NCBI GenBank assembly: GCA_007694185.1
Contig: RECD01000088.1
Coordinates: 62,001-126,000, forward strand
Origin: Planctomycetaceae bacterium
GTDB taxonomy: Bacteria; Planctomycetota; Planctomycetia; Pirellulales; Pirellulaceae
DNA length: 64,000 bases
Direction of reading: 5' to 3'
Part shown: positions 53,951 through 60,294 of the stretch, one piece after another
How the letters are laid out: every line of letters starts with the position of its first letter
Position numbering within the stretch: position 1 is the first letter of the stretch
Position numbers and translations under genes: made by a program
The notes under the pieces: generated by a model
What the model saw: only the letters and a program-made list of their open reading frames with translations
Told to the model about the DNA's origin: nothing
The model's database searches: none

Positions 53951-53979
53951 AGGTGGAAAAAAAGCACTTTTTTCACTCA
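53951..53979 (-). terminator. A/T-rich hairpin at the fliJ stop, possible weak terminator
   Basis: On the minus strand the fliJ stop is followed by AAAAAAG-TG-CTTTTTT, flanked by GGTG and CACC that can also pair, ending in a T-run. The stem is mostly A-U, so efficiency would be low. It may still mark the end of the flagellar transcript. Confidence 0.3.
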
Positions 53980-54437
53980 CCTGATCGTTGCGACCGGTCC
54001 ATTTTCACTTTGCCGCGATTGATTTCTTCGGCTTCCCGCTGCTCGGCCGCCAAGAAGCGTTCCCGATGAGCCCGGTGATCGCGACTGGAAAGCTTATCCC
54101 AACGACGGCATTCGATTTCGGCGGCTTGCAACCCGGTGCGGATGGCTTCGACCCGAAGCTCGGCCTCCGCTTCCTCGGCAACAAGTCTCGCGTCTTGGAG
54201 GGCGAGCGTCTGTTCGTAACGAGCCTGTTCTCGCAACGTCTCGGCACGGATGACGCCGAGCCGGGAGGCCCGATGTCGCCACATCGCCTCCCGCTTGAGC
54301 GCCGCCAAGTCCGACCGTCGCTCTCGAATCGTGTCCGCGGTCGCCATCGCGGCAGCCAGTTCCATGCGGATCGCGTCACGCTCCGCCTCCCGGACCCGCA
54401 GGACAGCCTGAAATCGAAAATGAAAACGCTGGCTCAT
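53973..54437 (-). CDS. fliJ: FliJ-like flagellar export chaperone
   Basis: 154 residues from the ATG at 54437 (MSQRFHFRFQAVLRVREAERD), the typical FliJ opening. Nearly the whole chain is an Arg/Glu/Ala-rich coiled coil, as expected of FliJ, the central stalk that couples the FliI ATPase ring to the export gate. FliJ sequences diverge strongly; the call rests on this opening, the length, the coiled coil and the position after fliI. Confidence 0.78.
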   Translation of the reverse strand: MSQRFHFRFQAVLRVREAERDAIRMELAAAMATADTIRERRSDLAALKREAMWRHRASRLGVIRAETLREQARYEQTLALQDARLVAEEAEAELRVEAIRTGLQAAEIECRRWDKLSSRDHRAHRERFLAAEQREAEEINRGKVKMDRSQRSGE

Positions 54438-54545
54438 GGAACTGTCGGCGATTTTGCAGATGGTGCGAACCAAAGGAACCGGAGACATCGCTCAACCGCC
54501 CGAACCCTTGCGATCGACCGCTTCCCCGGCAGGCACGTCGGCGGA

Positions 54546-55880
54546 TCACGGCACGCTCTGAACCAAGGACAACAGGTCCTGTTGGGCCGCGTCCAGGGTG
54601 AATCGTTGGTCAGTCCGTTGCCGCAGCAAACCGCCGGCGGCATCGCGGATGGCGATCGCCCGATCGACCGATGGCTGGCTACCAGCCCGGTAGGCACCGA
54701 TCGAAATCAGGTCGGCATGTCGGCGGTATTCTGCCAAATCTCGCCGCAACGACTCCGCCGCGTCGGCCACCTCGGGACGAACCAAGTGGGGCTGCAAGCG
54801 GCTGACACTCTCCAGAATGTCGATCGCCGGCCAATGGGCCTCTTCGGCAAGCGCTCGACTGAGCACAATGTGACCGTCGAGCAAGCCACGCATCGTGTCC
54901 GCGATCGGTTCGTTCAAATCATCTCCCTCCACCAGCACGCTGTAAAAAGCGGTGATCGACCCGGTTTCCGACCGCCCCGCCCGTTCGACCAACCGGGGCA
55001 GTGCCGCAAACACCCCCGGCGTGTAGCCACGACTCGTCACGGGCTCTCCCGCCGCCAAGGACAATTCCCGCTGGGCCATGGCCATGCGGGTGATCGAATC
55101 GACCAACAGCAACACGTGGCCGCCTTCGTCTCGCATCGATTCGGCGATCGCGGTGGCGGTCCAAGCCGCCTGCACCCGCAACGCCGCGGGCTGATCGCTG
55201 GTCGCCACTACCAGGACACAGCGGGCCATCCCGTCCGGTCCCAGCGCTCGCTCGACAAAGTCACGGACCTCACGGCCACGCTCGCCGACCATCGCGACGA
55301 CGATCGCGTCGGCTCCCGTGCCTCGAGCTAACATCCCCAACAAACTGCTCTTCCCGACCCCCGAACCGGCGAAGATGCCCATCCGTTGACCTCGCCCCAC
55401 CGTCAGCATCGCATCGATCGCACGGACACCGGTCGAGACGGGCTGGTCGATCGGCGGACGCGACCAGGATGCCGGCGCTCTCGAATCGCCTGCCAAGGCC
55501 GTCGCACCCCGCCCCACTTCGCGGCCATCTAAAGGACAGCCCAAAGCATCCAAGACTTGGCCCATCAACCGAAACCCGACCGGAATCCTCAACCCCTGAT
55601 CGACCAATGTGACGACGTCCCCGGCCGAAAACGCCGCTTCTTCCCCAAGCGGTGCCAAGACCGGCCTTGTCCCCTGAAAACCGATCACTTGGGCGTCACA
55701 ACTGCGCCCCCGAGCCAATTCGATGCGCAGGACCGCCCCCAGAGGAACAGTCATCCCCTCGACGATCACGTTCCCGCCCAACACCGCGGCAACCCGCCCG
55801 CGAATCGCCAGCGGACAAGTCGCGTCTAGCCGTTGTCGGATCACGTCCGCTGTGGGCAGCGAGGGCGGCTTAAGCATCAT
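54546..55880 (-). CDS. fliI: flagellum-specific ATPase FliI
   Basis: 444 residues. Walker A is GSGVGKSS (172-179), preceded by the typical GQRMGIFA. VVAMVGERGREVRDFVE and Walker B in HVLLLVDSITRMA follow, then SRGYTPGVFA and SITAFYSVLVEGDDLNEPIADTMRGLLDGHIVLSR. These are the FliI/SctN signatures that separate it from F1-ATPase beta. It energises type III export of flagellar subunits and is regulated by FliH. Its start overlaps fliH by 11 bases. Confidence 0.95.
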   Translation of the reverse strand: MMLKPPSLPTADVIRQRLDATCPLAIRGRVAAVLGGNVIVEGMTVPLGAVLRIELARGRSCDAQVIGFQGTRPVLAPLGEEAAFSAGDVVTLVDQGLRIPVGFRLMGQVLDALGCPLDGREVGRGATALAGDSRAPASWSRPPIDQPVSTGVRAIDAMLTVGRGQRMGIFAGSGVGKSSLLGMLARGTGADAIVVAMVGERGREVRDFVERALGPDGMARCVLVVATSDQPAALRVQAAWTATAIAESMRDEGGHVLLLVDSITRMAMAQRELSLAAGEPVTSRGYTPGVFAALPRLVERAGRSETGSITAFYSVLVEGDDLNEPIADTMRGLLDGHIVLSRALAEEAHWPAIDILESVSRLQPHLVRPEVADAAESLRRDLAEYRRHADLISIGAYRAGSQPSVDRAIAIRDAAGGLLRQRTDQRFTLDAAQQDLLSLVQSVP

Positions 55881-56559
55881 TCAACGCCTCCGCCAGACGC
55901 TCCAATTGCCCTTGCAAAGTCGCCGAGACTTCGCCGCCGGTTTGACGAACACTCACCCCCTCGCGAGGCACCGTTTCATCGGGAATGATCGAAATGTCTT
56001 CCGGCAGTCCCGGTCGCGTCAGGAGTTCATCGAGTTTCGGCCCCAACTCCGCAAGCGTCTCCGGATGGACCGCGACGGTCAACCGATCTGCCGACCGCGC
56101 GGCCCACAAAGCCTCCTCGGCCCAGCGGGCGATCAACTCCGGCTCCTGCCGTAAACATTGACGCACCACCCGTTCCGCGATCGCGACCGCAGTCGCGGTC
56201 AAGGACTCGGCGTAGTCGGCCATCCACGCCTGATGCGACTCGGTGATCTGCCGCAGCATCCCTTCCGTGGCAGAAACCAACTTTCCCACGCGTTCCTCGA
56301 CCTGGTGACGCAACCGCTCGTCCGCCTCGGCAGCCGCGACCGCTCGACCGGCTTGCAACCCTTCCTCATGGGCCTGCTGCTGGATCCGCTTCGCCTCGGC
56401 AACGGCCCGCTCCCGAATCCGGACGAGTTCCCGATCGCACGTCTCCAATTGGCTCTTAGCACGCTGCGAAAGGTCCTCAAAGTTGAAACCGGCCAGTCCC
56501 GCGGGAGCTGGTTGACCTTGGCCGATCGCAACGGTTGGCGACTTCAGGACAACTGCCAT
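55870..56559 (-). CDS. fliH: flagellar assembly protein FliH
   Basis: 229 residues. A helical, Ala/Glu/Gln-rich first half (about 25-140) contains a coiled coil with QQQAHEEGLQAGRAVAAAEAD. The C-terminal domain has AIAERVVRQCLRQEP, then VAVHPETLAEL and ISIIPDETVPREGVSVRQTGGEVSATL, the conserved FliH/HrpE pattern. FliH dimers bind FliI and link it to the motor C-ring, here the FliG part of the upstream fusion. GGAAG precedes the ATG by about 10 bases. Confidence 0.87.
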   Translation of the reverse strand: MAVVLKSPTVAIGQGQPAPAGLAGFNFEDLSQRAKSQLETCDRELVRIRERAVAEAKRIQQQAHEEGLQAGRAVAAAEADERLRHQVEERVGKLVSATEGMLRQITESHQAWMADYAESLTATAVAIAERVVRQCLRQEPELIARWAEEALWAARSADRLTVAVHPETLAELGPKLDELLTRPGLPEDISIIPDETVPREGVSVRQTGGEVSATLQGQLERLAEALNDA

Positions 56560-56629: not shown

Positions 56630-59041
56630 TCAAGCGGCCCCGGCCAACTTAGACGGAGCCTGCCGTGCCCGAGCCATGCTCTCATCCGCGTCATGCCCGG
56701 CCTCTCCGTACCGGCGATCGAGAGTATCCAAGTGCCGCGCGACCAAGGCTTGAGCCTGATCGATCTCGCGAAGCTCGAGCCTGCCGAGATTCACGATCTG
56801 CTTTCGAACCTGCCGTGCCTGCCTGCGTGGTAGAGCCCCCAACAGGGCTTCCGCCACCGATGGTGGCAAACCACACACCGCCAATACCGCTTGCCGGCCC
56901 TCGACCATCGCCAAGGCCTCGCGCAGTCGCCAAGGTTCCGCTTCGATCAGGCGGTCCTGCGGCCGGATGGCAGCCGGTTCGGCGACCGAACGAACCCGCT
57001 GGAATTGATCTCCGGGAGATCCCTCCGCCACTCCCGTCGCTCTCGACTGAGTCTGCGACATCTCTTCGAGGATCGCACTCAAGGCAGCCATCCCCAAAGG
57101 GGTCGATCGGCTCGCCTCCAACGACTCGGCCTCGAACAAACTTGACAAAGCGTCGTCGGATCGCTGCGGAAGGCTGCACAAACGCGTGCGAAGTTGCGCG
57201 GCAATGTCCTCCATCACTTCCGGGGGCGGCAGAGCTAACTTGGATAACCGACGCATCGCCTCGGACTTCAATTCGCCACCGAGGTTGGGGACCAAATCGG
57301 CCGCCAAGCCGGGCGGGATCGAGGCGAGGATGATGGCAACGGTTTGCGGGTGCTCTTCCCGAAGCCGCGCGACCAAGGTAGGCGGATCGACCTCGGTCAG
57401 AAACGCCAACGGATAGTTCGTCGCCCGGCCTAAATCGGCGGCTACTCGCGTGCTCGTATCCCGTTCGCCCGGGTGGGAAGCCACGCCCTCCGATCCCGAC
57501 CAATGCTCCTCGCTCGATTCCTGACGAATCGAGCGCTGCGAGTCGGCCGAGTCACAGGACGGGGCGACCGACGACCACGCATCGCTGGGCCAAAACCAGC
57601 GGGTCGCGACGACGAGCCCCAACGCCACAACCAATCCCAACAGATACAAACCGCTCTCGATCAATCGTTCCGTCCAGCCCTCGGCAACTTTAGCAACGAC
57701 CGCCTCCGAATCCGGCAGATCGGGATAATCCCAGACGTGTACCCGGGCTGCCGCCTCCTCCGAATCCGCTGCCATCGGCAGCAAAGGGGTCACGGCATCC
57801 CGAATTCGCCTCTCCGTCTCCACCCGCAGGCGTTGCCGGACCTCCTCGGTCGGGACCGGCAGATCAACCTCGGAACTCCCAGGATACTGACGAAGAAACT
57901 GCTGCCGCAGCGTCTTGTCGTAGTAACTGGATGGCAGCCCGACCGTGACCCGAACCCGTCGCACCTGTGCCGCGACAGCCGTGGACGGGTCAACCCGCAG
58001 GTCCCGTCGGGCCGTTTGCTCACCGCCGGTGCCCTGCTCACGGGTGCGATGTTCAGACCGATGGAAAGCGGTCGTACCAGCGGATCGATCGAGCAGAACC
58101 GGACGACTGACGGAGAAGGAGGTGGCGAATTCCTGCGAACGGCCAACGCCACCTGCAGCCCCTACTTCCGATTCGCCCGAATGGGGTGCCCCCATCGATC
58201 CCACCTCGGAATTTTCTTCATCCGCCCCTGCCCATCGCTTGGGGAAATCGAGTTCGACATGAGCGGCAACCCGCAGATCGCCATAACCGACCAAAGCTCG
58301 GAGGATCTTTTGTTCGTAAGCCTGCTCCTCCTCGAGTCGCTTGCGGAGCAGGGGGTCTCCTTCCTGCCAAGCCGATTCCGACTGCGAAGCGTTCGTATCG
58401 ATGACCGCCACGTCATCCCCGTTCAGACCGGCATACGACGCCCGGACAAGCTCCTTGATCATCCCGATACGGGCTTTGCCCAAAGGCTCTGTCCCCTCAG
58501 GCGAAACGACCACGGACGCCGATTGAGCCCGACTGCGTGACAAGCCTGGACGCTCTCCACGGTCATACTCGACACTGGCCCAGCGAACATCCGGAAACGA
58601 CGCGATGATCTTGCGTCCCAAGTCCTGAGCCTTGGCGTGGGCCTCACGAGAACTGCGTTGCTCACTCGACTCAAATAAGCTCGCTTTGTCCATCGCCTCT
58701 TGGAGACGCGATCGGAGTGCCAACGGCAGGGAATCCGAATCTCGCAATACGGACAGGTATTCGTTGCGATTCGAAAGCGGCACCCGAATTTGACGCCCCT
58801 CTCGGACCCACGCAGTCAATCCCGCTTGGCTAAAGGCCAATTCGATCGAGTCGACTTCGGCCTCGCTGAGTATTCGCCCGCCGAATAGCACCTCCGATTG
58901 CGGCACAGAGCCGAACCGCACCAGCCAAAGCAAGCCGATGCTGATGAGACACATCAACGCGGACGCCAGCAACCGTGAGCTCCAGGGCAGCGCACGGAAA
59001 CGGTCGCATATCCGCTGGAAAGCCTCGAGGGGTGGATTCAT
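56630..59041 (-). CDS. FliF-FliG fusion: flagellar MS-ring protein joined to rotor switch protein
   Basis: 803 residues from the ATG at 59041. FliF part: membrane helix about 22-43, ring-building motifs (SVPQSEVLFGG, KASLFESSEQRSSREAHAKAQDLGRKI, DLGRKIIASFPDVRWASVEYD, ASVVVSPEG), a long variable periplasmic loop, and a second membrane helix about 462-480. After a linker (485-540) comes a FliG part: middle domain with LREEHPQTVAIILASIP (560-576) and a C-terminal domain with AVLAVCGLPPSVAEALLGALPRRQARQVRKQI (718-749). The FliG N-terminal domain, which normally binds the FliF tail, is missing, as expected if covalent fusion replaces it. No frameshift is needed; the frame is continuous. Confidence 0.85.
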   Translation of the reverse strand: MNPPLEAFQRICDRFRALPWSSRLLASALMCLISIGLLWLVRFGSVPQSEVLFGGRILSEAEVDSIELAFSQAGLTAWVREGRQIRVPLSNRNEYLSVLRDSDSLPLALRSRLQEAMDKASLFESSEQRSSREAHAKAQDLGRKIIASFPDVRWASVEYDRGERPGLSRSRAQSASVVVSPEGTEPLGKARIGMIKELVRASYAGLNGDDVAVIDTNASQSESAWQEGDPLLRKRLEEEQAYEQKILRALVGYGDLRVAAHVELDFPKRWAGADEENSEVGSMGAPHSGESEVGAAGGVGRSQEFATSFSVSRPVLLDRSAGTTAFHRSEHRTREQGTGGEQTARRDLRVDPSTAVAAQVRRVRVTVGLPSSYYDKTLRQQFLRQYPGSSEVDLPVPTEEVRQRLRVETERRIRDAVTPLLPMAADSEEAAARVHVWDYPDLPDSEAVVAKVAEGWTERLIESGLYLLGLVVALGLVVATRWFWPSDAWSSVAPSCDSADSQRSIRQESSEEHWSGSEGVASHPGERDTSTRVAADLGRATNYPLAFLTEVDPPTLVARLREEHPQTVAIILASIPPGLAADLVPNLGGELKSEAMRRLSKLALPPPEVMEDIAAQLRTRLCSLPQRSDDALSSLFEAESLEASRSTPLGMAALSAILEEMSQTQSRATGVAEGSPGDQFQRVRSVAEPAAIRPQDRLIEAEPWRLREALAMVEGRQAVLAVCGLPPSVAEALLGALPRRQARQVRKQIVNLGRLELREIDQAQALVARHLDTLDRRYGEAGHDADESMARARQAPSKLAGAA

Positions 59042-59075: not shown

Positions 59076-59537
59076 TCAAGCCGCCTTTCGAGTCGATGCG
59101 ATCGGATTGGCATCGGGCAGGGTGATCGTCACAGCAACACCACCTTGGGGGCAATTCTGCCAATGGGGCTTGCAACCCAATCCGGCAGCAGCGAGCGAAA
59201 CCGGCAGTTCCCGATCCTCCACACCCCCCACCGAGTCCGCGATCTCCAACTCGATACCCTGTACCGAATGGACCGCAGTGACCGTGAGCTCTCCCCCATC
59301 GGACATGGGCTTCAACGAGCCGCGGACAAGGCTCTTGAGCAAATCGCTAAGCAACTCCGGATCGGCCGTCGTCATCAAATCGATCGGCACGGCCAAATCA
59401 AAGTGGATCGGCGCGGGATGCTCCCGAAGCAAGGGAAAGATCACACATTCGACCAGCACCGCTAACTTGACGGGTGTTCGGTCGACTGCTGCCCTCGACG
59501 CCTGGAAAGGCACTCGCCCTGAAGATCTGTCCGACAT
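59076..59537 (-). CDS. small HATPase-like protein with degenerate nucleotide-binding motifs
   Basis: 153 residues from the ATG at 59537, chosen for GGGAG 7 bases upstream over the longer frame. The layout fits the ATPase half of histidine or anti-sigma kinases: PIHFDLAVPIDLMTTADPELLSDLLKSLVRG, a beta pair GGELTVTAVHSVQGIELEIADSVGG, then AAAGLGCKPHWQNCPQGGVAVTITLP. The N-box Asn is absent (DLLKSLV) and the G1 box is ADSVGG instead of DxGxG, so ATP binding is doubtful. It lies 34 bases ahead of the fliF-fliG fusion and is probably co-transcribed. A chemotaxis or motor-linked adaptor role is conceivable. Confidence 0.6.
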   Translation of the reverse strand: MSDRSSGRVPFQASRAAVDRTPVKLAVLVECVIFPLLREHPAPIHFDLAVPIDLMTTADPELLSDLLKSLVRGSLKPMSDGGELTVTAVHSVQGIELEIADSVGGVEDRELPVSLAAAGLGCKPHWQNCPQGGVAVTITLPDANPIASTRKAA

Positions 59538-59685
59538 GCTTCTCTCCCTGAACTCCCGAAACACCTCATAAACCGCCCATCCTGCGGCTTGATAAAGGTG
59601 TCCATAAAGGATCAAGGGAGCCGGCCACAAGAGCGAAAAGATCTTACGGTCGTGACCATGCCAATGTCGAACAAAAACGGACGGC

Positions 59686-60294
59686 TCACGCCTCCGCTGA
59701 CTCGGCCACGGCAGCGGTTTCTTCACTCGCGAATGACGGCTTGATACTCGCCTTCTTCACGCGGTCGTTCTTACCGACCAATTCCAAAATGGCGCGAGTC
59801 CCGGCATCACCCAACCGCGGCGTCGCCAACCGGACGACTCGCGTGTAACCACCGGGCCGATCGACAAACCGTTCGGCAACCCGATCGAACAAGACCTGGG
59901 TCGCCTGCTTGTCACCGATCAGTTGCAACACGCGACGACGGGCATTGACGACGGGGGCACGAGCCGCCGCCCATTTCTGCCACTCCTCGCTCTTTCGCCA
60001 CGCTTTGTATTCGTCAGAGCCACGCGGACCCGGCGTCGCGAACTTCTTCGCCTCTTCCGCCGAAATCAACGACTTCTTGGCAATCGTGATGCATTTTTCG
60101 ACCAACGGCCGGACTTCCTTGGCCTTTTCGAGCGTGGTCACGATACGCCCGGGGACCTTGGGAACATTCCCAGCCAACTCGGCCACCTCGGGGTCGCGTT
60201 CGGTCAAGAATATGGCACTCGCCAAGTTCTTCAACAAGGCTTTACGGTGACTGGGACTACGCCCCAGAACGCGGCTTTTTCTACGGTGTCGCAT
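59686..60294 (-). CDS. rplQ: 50S ribosomal protein L17 with an internal insertion
   Basis: 202 residues against about 120-130 in most bacteria. The N-terminus MRHRRKSRVLGRSPSHRKALLKNLASA and the C-terminal GGYTRVVRLATPRLGDAGTRAILELVG are classic L17. About 45 extra residues rich in Lys, Glu and Ala (near 70-115) separate the first conserved half from NARRRVLQLIGD, and a Glu/Ala tail follows. It sits directly downstream of rpoA, its usual place. The gap to the next gene on the strand is 148 bases. Confidence 0.95.
   Translation of the reverse strand: MRHRRKSRVLGRSPSHRKALLKNLASAIFLTERDPEVAELAGNVPKVPGRIVTTLEKAKEVRPLVEKCITIAKKSLISAEEAKKFATPGPRGSDEYKAWRKSEEWQKWAAARAPVVNARRRVLQLIGDKQATQVLFDRVAERFVDRPGGYTRVVRLATPRLGDAGTRAILELVGKNDRVKKASIKPSFASEETAAVAESAEA

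What the first reader, a model, noticed from the sequence alone, without database searches (positions are those of the whole stretch)
56630..59041. Natural FliF-FliG fusion without the FliG N-terminal domain
One uninterrupted frame encodes a full FliF (two membrane helices, ring-building motifs) followed by FliG middle (EHPQTVAIILA) and C-terminal domains. In most bacteria FliG is separate and its N-terminal domain binds the FliF tail; here that domain is absent and covalent linkage would replace it. This fixes FliF:FliG stoichiometry at 1:1 and constrains how the rotor switches. I know engineered FliF-FliG fusions in Salmonella that still rotate; I do not know how widespread natural ones are.
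Basis: partly seen in the sequence, partly recalled or inferred. Interest (0 to 1): 0.75.

Follow-up and report, generated by a model that had tools for sequence, protein, structure and literature searches.

The report
Fused FliF-FliG in non-flagellar exporter
A planctomycete bacterium that appears to have no flagellar filament makes the flagellar base-ring protein FliF and the switch protein FliG as one chain, apparently the frame of a leftover protein-export machine rather than of a rotating motor, and several relatives seem to have arrived at the same fusion independently.

Summary
The fusion is real. One open frame (56630-59041, minus strand, 803 aa) encodes FliF, then FliG middle and C-terminal domains, with no FliG_N. 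It is the only FliG found in a genome estimated 99% complete. The motor reading is not supported: no Flagellin_N, rod/hook or MotA_N family was found (the MotA test is weak), and the torque charges of FliG_C are gone. What remains is FlhA, FlhB without its cytoplasmic switch domain, FliO/P/Q/R, FliM, FliN and FliH/I/J. Best reading: the membrane ring and covalent C-ring tether of a flagellum-derived, non-flagellar export system. The FliF tail that binds FliG_N and FliG_N itself are both missing, with a linker in their place. N-less fusions occur in three other genomes, also without flagellin, and a FliF tree needs four origins, two of them on long, unsure branches. A natural FliF-FliG_M fusion was already described in Chlamydiaceae (Bergeron 2016), so this is a new variant, not a new kind. 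Secretion itself is inferred, not shown.

The parts
56630..59041 (-). fused FliF-FliG gene, 803 aa
   Evidence: one open frame; Pfam YscJ_FliF, FliG_M, FliG_C
58919..58975 (-). first transmembrane helix, residues 23-41
   Evidence: hydropathy
58388..58903 (-). FliF/YscJ ring-building region, residues 47-218
   Evidence: Pfam PF01514; local FliF profile, which includes this protein, covers 25-537 in the 827-aa numbering with 472 bits
57608..57664 (-). second transmembrane helix, residues 460-478
   Evidence: hydropathy
57422..57607 (-). linker, residues 479-540, where relatives have the FliF tail motif and FliG_N
   Evidence: alignment to G474; tail profile absent; residues 511-541 have pLDDT under 50 in the model
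57164..57412 (-). FliG middle domain with EHPQ motif, residues 544-626
   Evidence: Pfam PF14841 555-626, local profile from 544, structure match 4fq0_C
56720..56953 (-). FliG C-terminal domain without the torque charges, residues 697-774
   Evidence: Pfam PF01706, 1qc7 match, residue comparison
55870..56559 (-). fliH
   Evidence: Pfam PF02108 E 1e-10
54546..55880 (-). fliI, export ATPase with intact Walker A
   Evidence: Pfam ATP-synt_ab 1.2e-83 and T3SS_ATPase_C; motifs
53973..54488 (-). fliJ-like
   Evidence: NCBIfam TIGR02473 E 2e-10, below its cut-off; Pfam FliJ weak, E 0.0088
59076..59726 (-). histidine-kinase-like ATPase gene, frequent neighbour of fliF in relatives
   Evidence: no Pfam hit, weak NCBIfam kinase hits; similar genes upstream of fliF in many loci

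Best explanation
The gene makes the inner-membrane ring of a flagellum-derived but non-flagellar type III export system. Shown by sequence: FliF and FliG_M/FliG_C are one chain; the FliF C-terminal FliG_N-binding helix and FliG_N are both missing and a linker of about 60 residues stands in their place; the genome keeps the gate (FlhA, FlhB transmembrane part, FliO/P/Q/R), C-ring proteins FliM and FliN, and FliH/I/J; Flagellin_N, rod/hook and MotA_N families were not found. Inferred: about one FliG_M per FliF hangs under the ring on a flexible tether, holds FliM/FliN through the FliG_M EHPQ face (and perhaps FlhA, as the FliF C-terminus does in Chlamydia), and so positions the FliH-FliI-FliJ loading complex under the gate. 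FliG_C is kept as a ring-packing or FliM-binding domain; it has lost the charges that take torque. Without FlhB's cytoplasmic domain there is no early-to-late substrate switch, as expected if no rod, hook or filament is built. What is exported, and how far, is unknown; export to the periplasm is the simplest guess.
For: One FliG in the genome. Flagellin_N 0, PF00460 0, MotA_N 0; one FlhA. FlhB matches its Pfam profile only at 1-236 of 335, against 1-335 in flagellated G321; FliP, FliR, FliO, FliM (PF02154, E 9.2e-18) and FliN present, FliQ read. Torque Lys and acidic pair: present in 8 of 8 canonical FliGs, 0 of 17 fliF-operon FliGs of this order, 0 of 4 N-less fusions. FliF tail motif at the C-end of 26 of 27 separate FliFs not used in training (some are close kin of training rows; the exception, G543, has no FliG found), absent from 5 of 5 fusions. 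N-less fusions: 4 of 12 examined genomes without flagellin, 0 of 34 with it. Four origins in the FliF tree. N-P cleavage pair lost in 5 of 5 FlhBs read from genomes without flagellin, kept in 2 of 2 flagellated ones. C. pneumoniae FliF residues 271-341 are required for binding FlhA (PMC2830194, passages).
Against: No secretion or assembly was tested. The genes lie on four contigs (C131, C138, C154, C157). FliF and FliI branches are about 1.6-2.8 times longer in G000 and G482 than in their nearest flagellated relatives, which also fits decay. MotA_N is a weak test here: planctomycete MotA scores about 24 bits, under the cut-off, and 7 of the 34 flagellin-bearing genomes also lack a hit. PF00460 scores one relative's FlgB just below cut-off. 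I chose several genomes for fetching because they lacked flagellin; the Fisher test (p 0.003) ignores kinship, counts G549 (cut by a contig end) as unfused and G365 (hook and MotA present) as lacking flagellin. Some genomes without flagellin keep fliF and fliG apart (G453, G526).
Confidence: 0.68

Rival explanations
1. A working flagellar rotor with FliF and FliG locked at 1:1.
For: Engineered Salmonella FliF-FliG fusions are motile with altered rotation bias; one lacks a major part of FliG_N (PMC7355467, passages). FliM and FliN are present.
Against: No Flagellin_N, rod/hook or MotA_N found; torque charges lost; FlhB switch domain missing.
Confidence: 0.04
2. A decaying relic: leftover flagellar genes drifting after loss of motility, with the fusion as a step of decay.
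For: Longer branches for FliF and FliI, scattered genes, truncated FlhB; a further reduced form without FliG exists in G543.
Against: The retained genes read have open frames: FlhA scores 775 bits over 2-655 of 657 profile positions and FliI keeps GSGVGKS and GERGREV. Loss of FliF tail and FliG_N with in-frame fusion arose in four lineages by the FliF tree, and G000, G450 and the FliG-less G543 lack the same part of FlhB.
Confidence: 0.2
3. An assembly or sequencing artefact joined two neighbouring genes.
For: The genome is in 288 contigs, and fliF and fliG are neighbours in relatives.
Against: The FliF tail motif and the whole FliG_N are missing, not merely a stop; three other genomes show an N-less fusion.
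Confidence: 0.02
4. One ancient fusion spread by transfer between planctomycetes.
For: Four genomes of one class share an N-less fusion.
Against: The FliF tree needs four origins and none of 200 bootstrap trees has one; G482 groups with unfused G459 (99/97) and G000 with unfused G474 (93/56). Two of the four branches (G450, G266) are long and unsure, and what is kept of FliG differs.
Confidence: 0.06

Closest known systems
Chlamydiaceae FliF-FliG fusion (Bergeron 2016, PeerJ e1718, PMC4768692; passages read)
   Same: natural single chain of FliF plus FliG_M after the second membrane helix, no FliG_N reported, non-flagellated bacterium
   Different: Chlamydia's FliF is about 330 aa with a shortened periplasmic part and only FliG_M, beside few flagellar genes and a full injectisome. 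Here FliF is full length, FliG_C is kept, FliM/FliN/FliH/I/J and the gate are present, and only one FlhA-family gene is found. G450's 632-aa form, with a shorter FliF and FliG_M, is nearer to Chlamydia's.
Engineered Salmonella FliF-FliG fusions (reviewed in PMC7355467; passages); PDB 8z4d/8z4g list a 945-aa chain named FliF plus FliG (listing only)
   Same: FliF joined to FliG; in the deletion fusion a major part of FliG_N is missing
   Different: the Salmonella strains are motile; this one evolved naturally in a genome where neither stator nor filament was found
Myxococcales 'Myxo' non-flagellar T3SS (Abby and Rocha 2012, PMC3459982; passages)
   Same: flagellum-derived export system lacking parts essential for motility
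   Different: that paper lists Planctomycetes only under flagella; here FliG and flagellar-type FliM/FliN are kept

Membership tests
natural FliF-FliG fusion (Chlamydiaceae type) | FliF and FliG_M in one uninterrupted frame | tested here: met
natural FliF-FliG fusion (Chlamydiaceae type) | FliG_N absent | tested here: met
natural FliF-FliG fusion (Chlamydiaceae type) | shortened FliF periplasmic region and no FliG_C | tested here: not met
   FliF part full length, FliG_C present
flagellar motor | filament and junction proteins with the Flagellin_N domain | tested here: not met
   0 in own genome; family found in 101 of 198 class genomes
flagellar motor | rod and hook proteins | tested here: not met
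   PF00460 0 in own genome; the model does hit relatives' FlgC and FlgE above cut-off, FlgB just below
flagellar motor | MotA stator | tested here: inconclusive
   MotA_N 0, but planctomycete MotA scores weakly; the broader MotA_ExbB family was not searched
flagellar motor | charged torque residues of FliG_C | tested here: not met
   which residues matter, and their E. coli numbers, are recalled
flagellar-type export apparatus | FlhA, FlhB, FliP, FliQ, FliR, FliH, FliI | tested here: met
   FlhB lacks its cytoplasmic domain; FliQ by reading and by similarity to relatives
flagellar-type export apparatus | secretes proteins | not testable with these tools
   needs experiment
injectisome (NF-T3SS) | separate SctJ and SctD rings, secretin, needle | not tested
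   no search for secretin or SctD was run; one FlhA/SctV-family gene only; the FliF part scores 37 bits with the YscJ model and 20 with the fliF model, both under cut-off

The most novel reading that the evidence does not exclude
Planctomycetes have repeatedly turned the flagellum into a rod-less, stator-less protein exporter. Each time a torque-less FliG became a covalent tether of the export platform to the FliF ring, and FlhB lost its substrate switch: a natural, replayed series from flagellum to minimal secretion machine.
Probability: 0.4. Interest if true: 0.78.

Novelty: new variant of a known kind. Interest (0 to 1): 0.6.

Why it matters
How the flagellum gave rise to non-motile secretion systems is an old question with few living intermediates. 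This class holds what looks like a graded series: flagellated with fliF and fliG apart; no flagellin but genes apart (G453, G526); fused without FliG_N (G000, G482); reduced fusion (G450); FliF without a FliG (G543). It also suggests that FliG can have a job without rotation, as a platform tether, and that loss of the FliF tail/FliG_N joint may go with loss of the FlhB switch domain.

Tried and rejected
Rotor reading: rejected on gene content and torque residues. Artefact: rejected. Single origin: not supported by the FliF tree. First idea that the fusion belonged to a second export system beside a flagellum: rejected, since one FlhA and one FliF (which scored 5 of 21 candidates) were found and relatives' flagellar cluster is the homologous locus. 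Absence of flgB/flgC between the kinase-like gene and fliF looked diagnostic: the gap is about 250 nt or less in eight genomes without flagellin (G000, G482, G450, G543, G549, G453, G526, G502) and 1.4 kb or more in seven others (G474, G353, G546, G514, G424, G430, G365), but G490 and G510 carry flagellin and also have a short gap, so it is not used as proof. Combined FliF+FliG alignment A2 was misaligned and not used. FlhB of G482 was not located. A relaxed-selection test was limited to branch lengths. The first tail test used 5 held-out FliFs with a FliG plus G543; it was widened to 27 held-out FliFs. Eight literature searches (open PMC library only) showed no planctomycete FliF-FliG fusion in the rows listed; subscription journals are not in it.

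Full report
Observation. The ORF at 56630-59041 (minus) is one frame of 803 codons. Pfam finds FliF, FliG_M and FliG_C above their cut-offs and no significant FliG_N. A model of the FliG part (mean pLDDT 74, its two domains about 90) matches solved FliG_M and FliG_C structures domain by domain (Z 13.4 and 11.9); the segment before FliG_M and the one between the domains are low-confidence. In the whole genome (5.78 Mb, 99.02% complete) there is one FliG_M, one FliG_C and no FliG_N.

What else the genome has. FlhA is single and full length. FlhB, FliR, FliQ, FliP, an FlhF-like GTPase and FlhA lie together on contig C131; FliN with FliO on C138 and FliM on C154; FliH, FliI and FliJ follow the fusion in the window. 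Not found: Flagellin_N, rod/hook PF00460, MotA_N. Controls for these three families ring in 4 of 14 reference genomes each. In relatives PF00460 hits FlgC and FlgE, with FlgB just under the cut-off, while MotA_N is weak on planctomycete MotA, so the stator result alone is inconclusive.

Junction. In relatives with separate genes FliF ends in a conserved helix-like motif (of the kind L-V-R-E-D-P-D-x-A-A-x-I-L-R-x-W-I-G) and FliG starts with FliG_N. That this tail binds FliG_N is established for other species (recalled; also stated in PMC4768692). A profile of the tail, made from 16 FliFs, finds it at the C-end of 26 of 27 separate FliFs not used for training (weakest: G257, 8.6 bits; some rows are close kin of training rows). 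The exception, G543, has no FliG found. It is absent from the fusions of G000, G482, G450, G266 and G524 (5 of 5). So the two partners of one joint are lost in the first four and the chains are joined by a linker, here about 62 residues. G524 is different: its 894-aa fusion keeps FliG_N.

Torque residues. Eight canonical FliGs of relatives keep the Lys, Arg and acidic pair of the torque region: six lie without any FliF within their 18-20 kb stretch (G167, G321, G389, G350, G474, and G456, a genome without flagellin) and two are next to fliF in another family of the class (G369, G492). The stand-alone gene sits near CheX in G321 and near a chemoreceptor-like gene in G167. In this order the FliG in the fliF operon lacks the Lys and the acidic pair (0 of 17, most from flagellated genomes). 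The fusions of G000 and G482 stand at the place of that operon FliG; G266 belongs to the other family and must have lost the charges separately. 0 of 4 N-less fusions have them, while G524 keeps the Lys. E. coli residue numbers are recalled.

FlhB. The cytoplasmic domain is absent in G000 (profile 1-236 of 335), G450 (6-220) and G543 (2-241), complete in G321. G526 and G453, without flagellin and with separate fliF and fliG, keep the domain but have lost the N-P cleavage pair; G321 and G350 keep N-P-T-E. In Salmonella, cleavage between Asn269 and Pro270 is needed for the substrate switch (PMC7911332, passages). FlhB of G482 and G266 was not read.

Distribution. A phylum search with FliG_M matched 233 of 392 genomes. 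The fused protein matched 97 of 198 class genomes; flagellin was found in 101 and MotA_N in 68 of 198 class genomes drawn the same way. I fetched and classified FliF ORFs of 46 of the 97. N-less fusions: 4 of 12 without flagellin (G000, G482, G450, G266), 0 of 34 with it; Fisher p 0.003, not corrected for kinship. Of the 12, G549 is cut by a contig end, so its state is unknown, and G365 still has MotA, FlgD, FlgE and FliK and is probably flagellated. All frames longer than 600 codons in the printed rows were examined, except G216, whose match is broken by two stops; one search printed only its better rows, and I chose several genomes because they lacked flagellin. In G266 only FliG_C is recognised; in G450 FliG_M, with FliG_C below cut-off and the related MgtE_N above it.

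Origins. In a FliF tree of 33 rows the four N-less fusions need four changes, also the least that well supported branches force. G000 is next to flagellated G474 (93/56), G482 next to flagellated G459 (99/97). G450 and G266 are long branches of unsure place. FliI branches: G000 0.93 against 0.59 for its sister line to G474 (0.42+0.17), G482 0.63 against 0.35 for G459 (fork 84/44), G526 0.31 against 0.31 for G424. FliF branches: G000 0.91 against 0.54, G482 0.86 against 0.31.

Placing.

Known work. Bergeron 2016 described the Chlamydiaceae fusion (passages). PMC2830194 shows that the C-terminus of C. pneumoniae FliF is required for binding FlhA (passages). Salmonella fusions are reviewed in PMC7355467 (passages). 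Abby and Rocha list Planctomycetes only under flagella (passages).

Verdict. Observation confirmed; interpretation partly supported; a new variant of a known kind of fusion, in a probable non-flagellar export system.

Noticed in passing
L106 8677-9702, L113 8807-9802, against operon FliG L105 8031-9188: Flagellated relatives carry two FliGs: a stand-alone one with intact torque charges near chemotaxis genes and a fliF-operon one without them; the C-ring may be mixed.
   Followed up: partly
L064 15216-16016 (G000), L079 13513-14208 (G450), L086 5074-6363 (G543): FlhB ends before the cytoplasmic cleavage domain in three genomes without flagellin.
   Followed up: yes
L077 8277-10961: G524: a FliF-FliG fusion that keeps FliG_N, in a genome with flagellin.
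   Followed up: partly
L184 1296-3605: Solirubrobacterales bacterium 70-9: FliF, FliG_N and half of FliG_M in one 769-aa frame, perhaps a fusion broken by a frameshift.
   Followed up: no
L086 8532-10049: G543: FliF without a FliG found and without the FliF tail, followed by fliO-P-Q-R and a short flhB.
   Followed up: partly
L070 5701-6453 and similar ORFs in 13 other loci: A conserved esterase-like alpha/beta hydrolase gene lies near the kinase-like gene and fliF in genomes with and without flagellin.
   Followed up: partly
59076-59726: Short histidine-kinase-like ATPase without a detected sensor part, a frequent neighbour of fliF in this group.
   Followed up: partly
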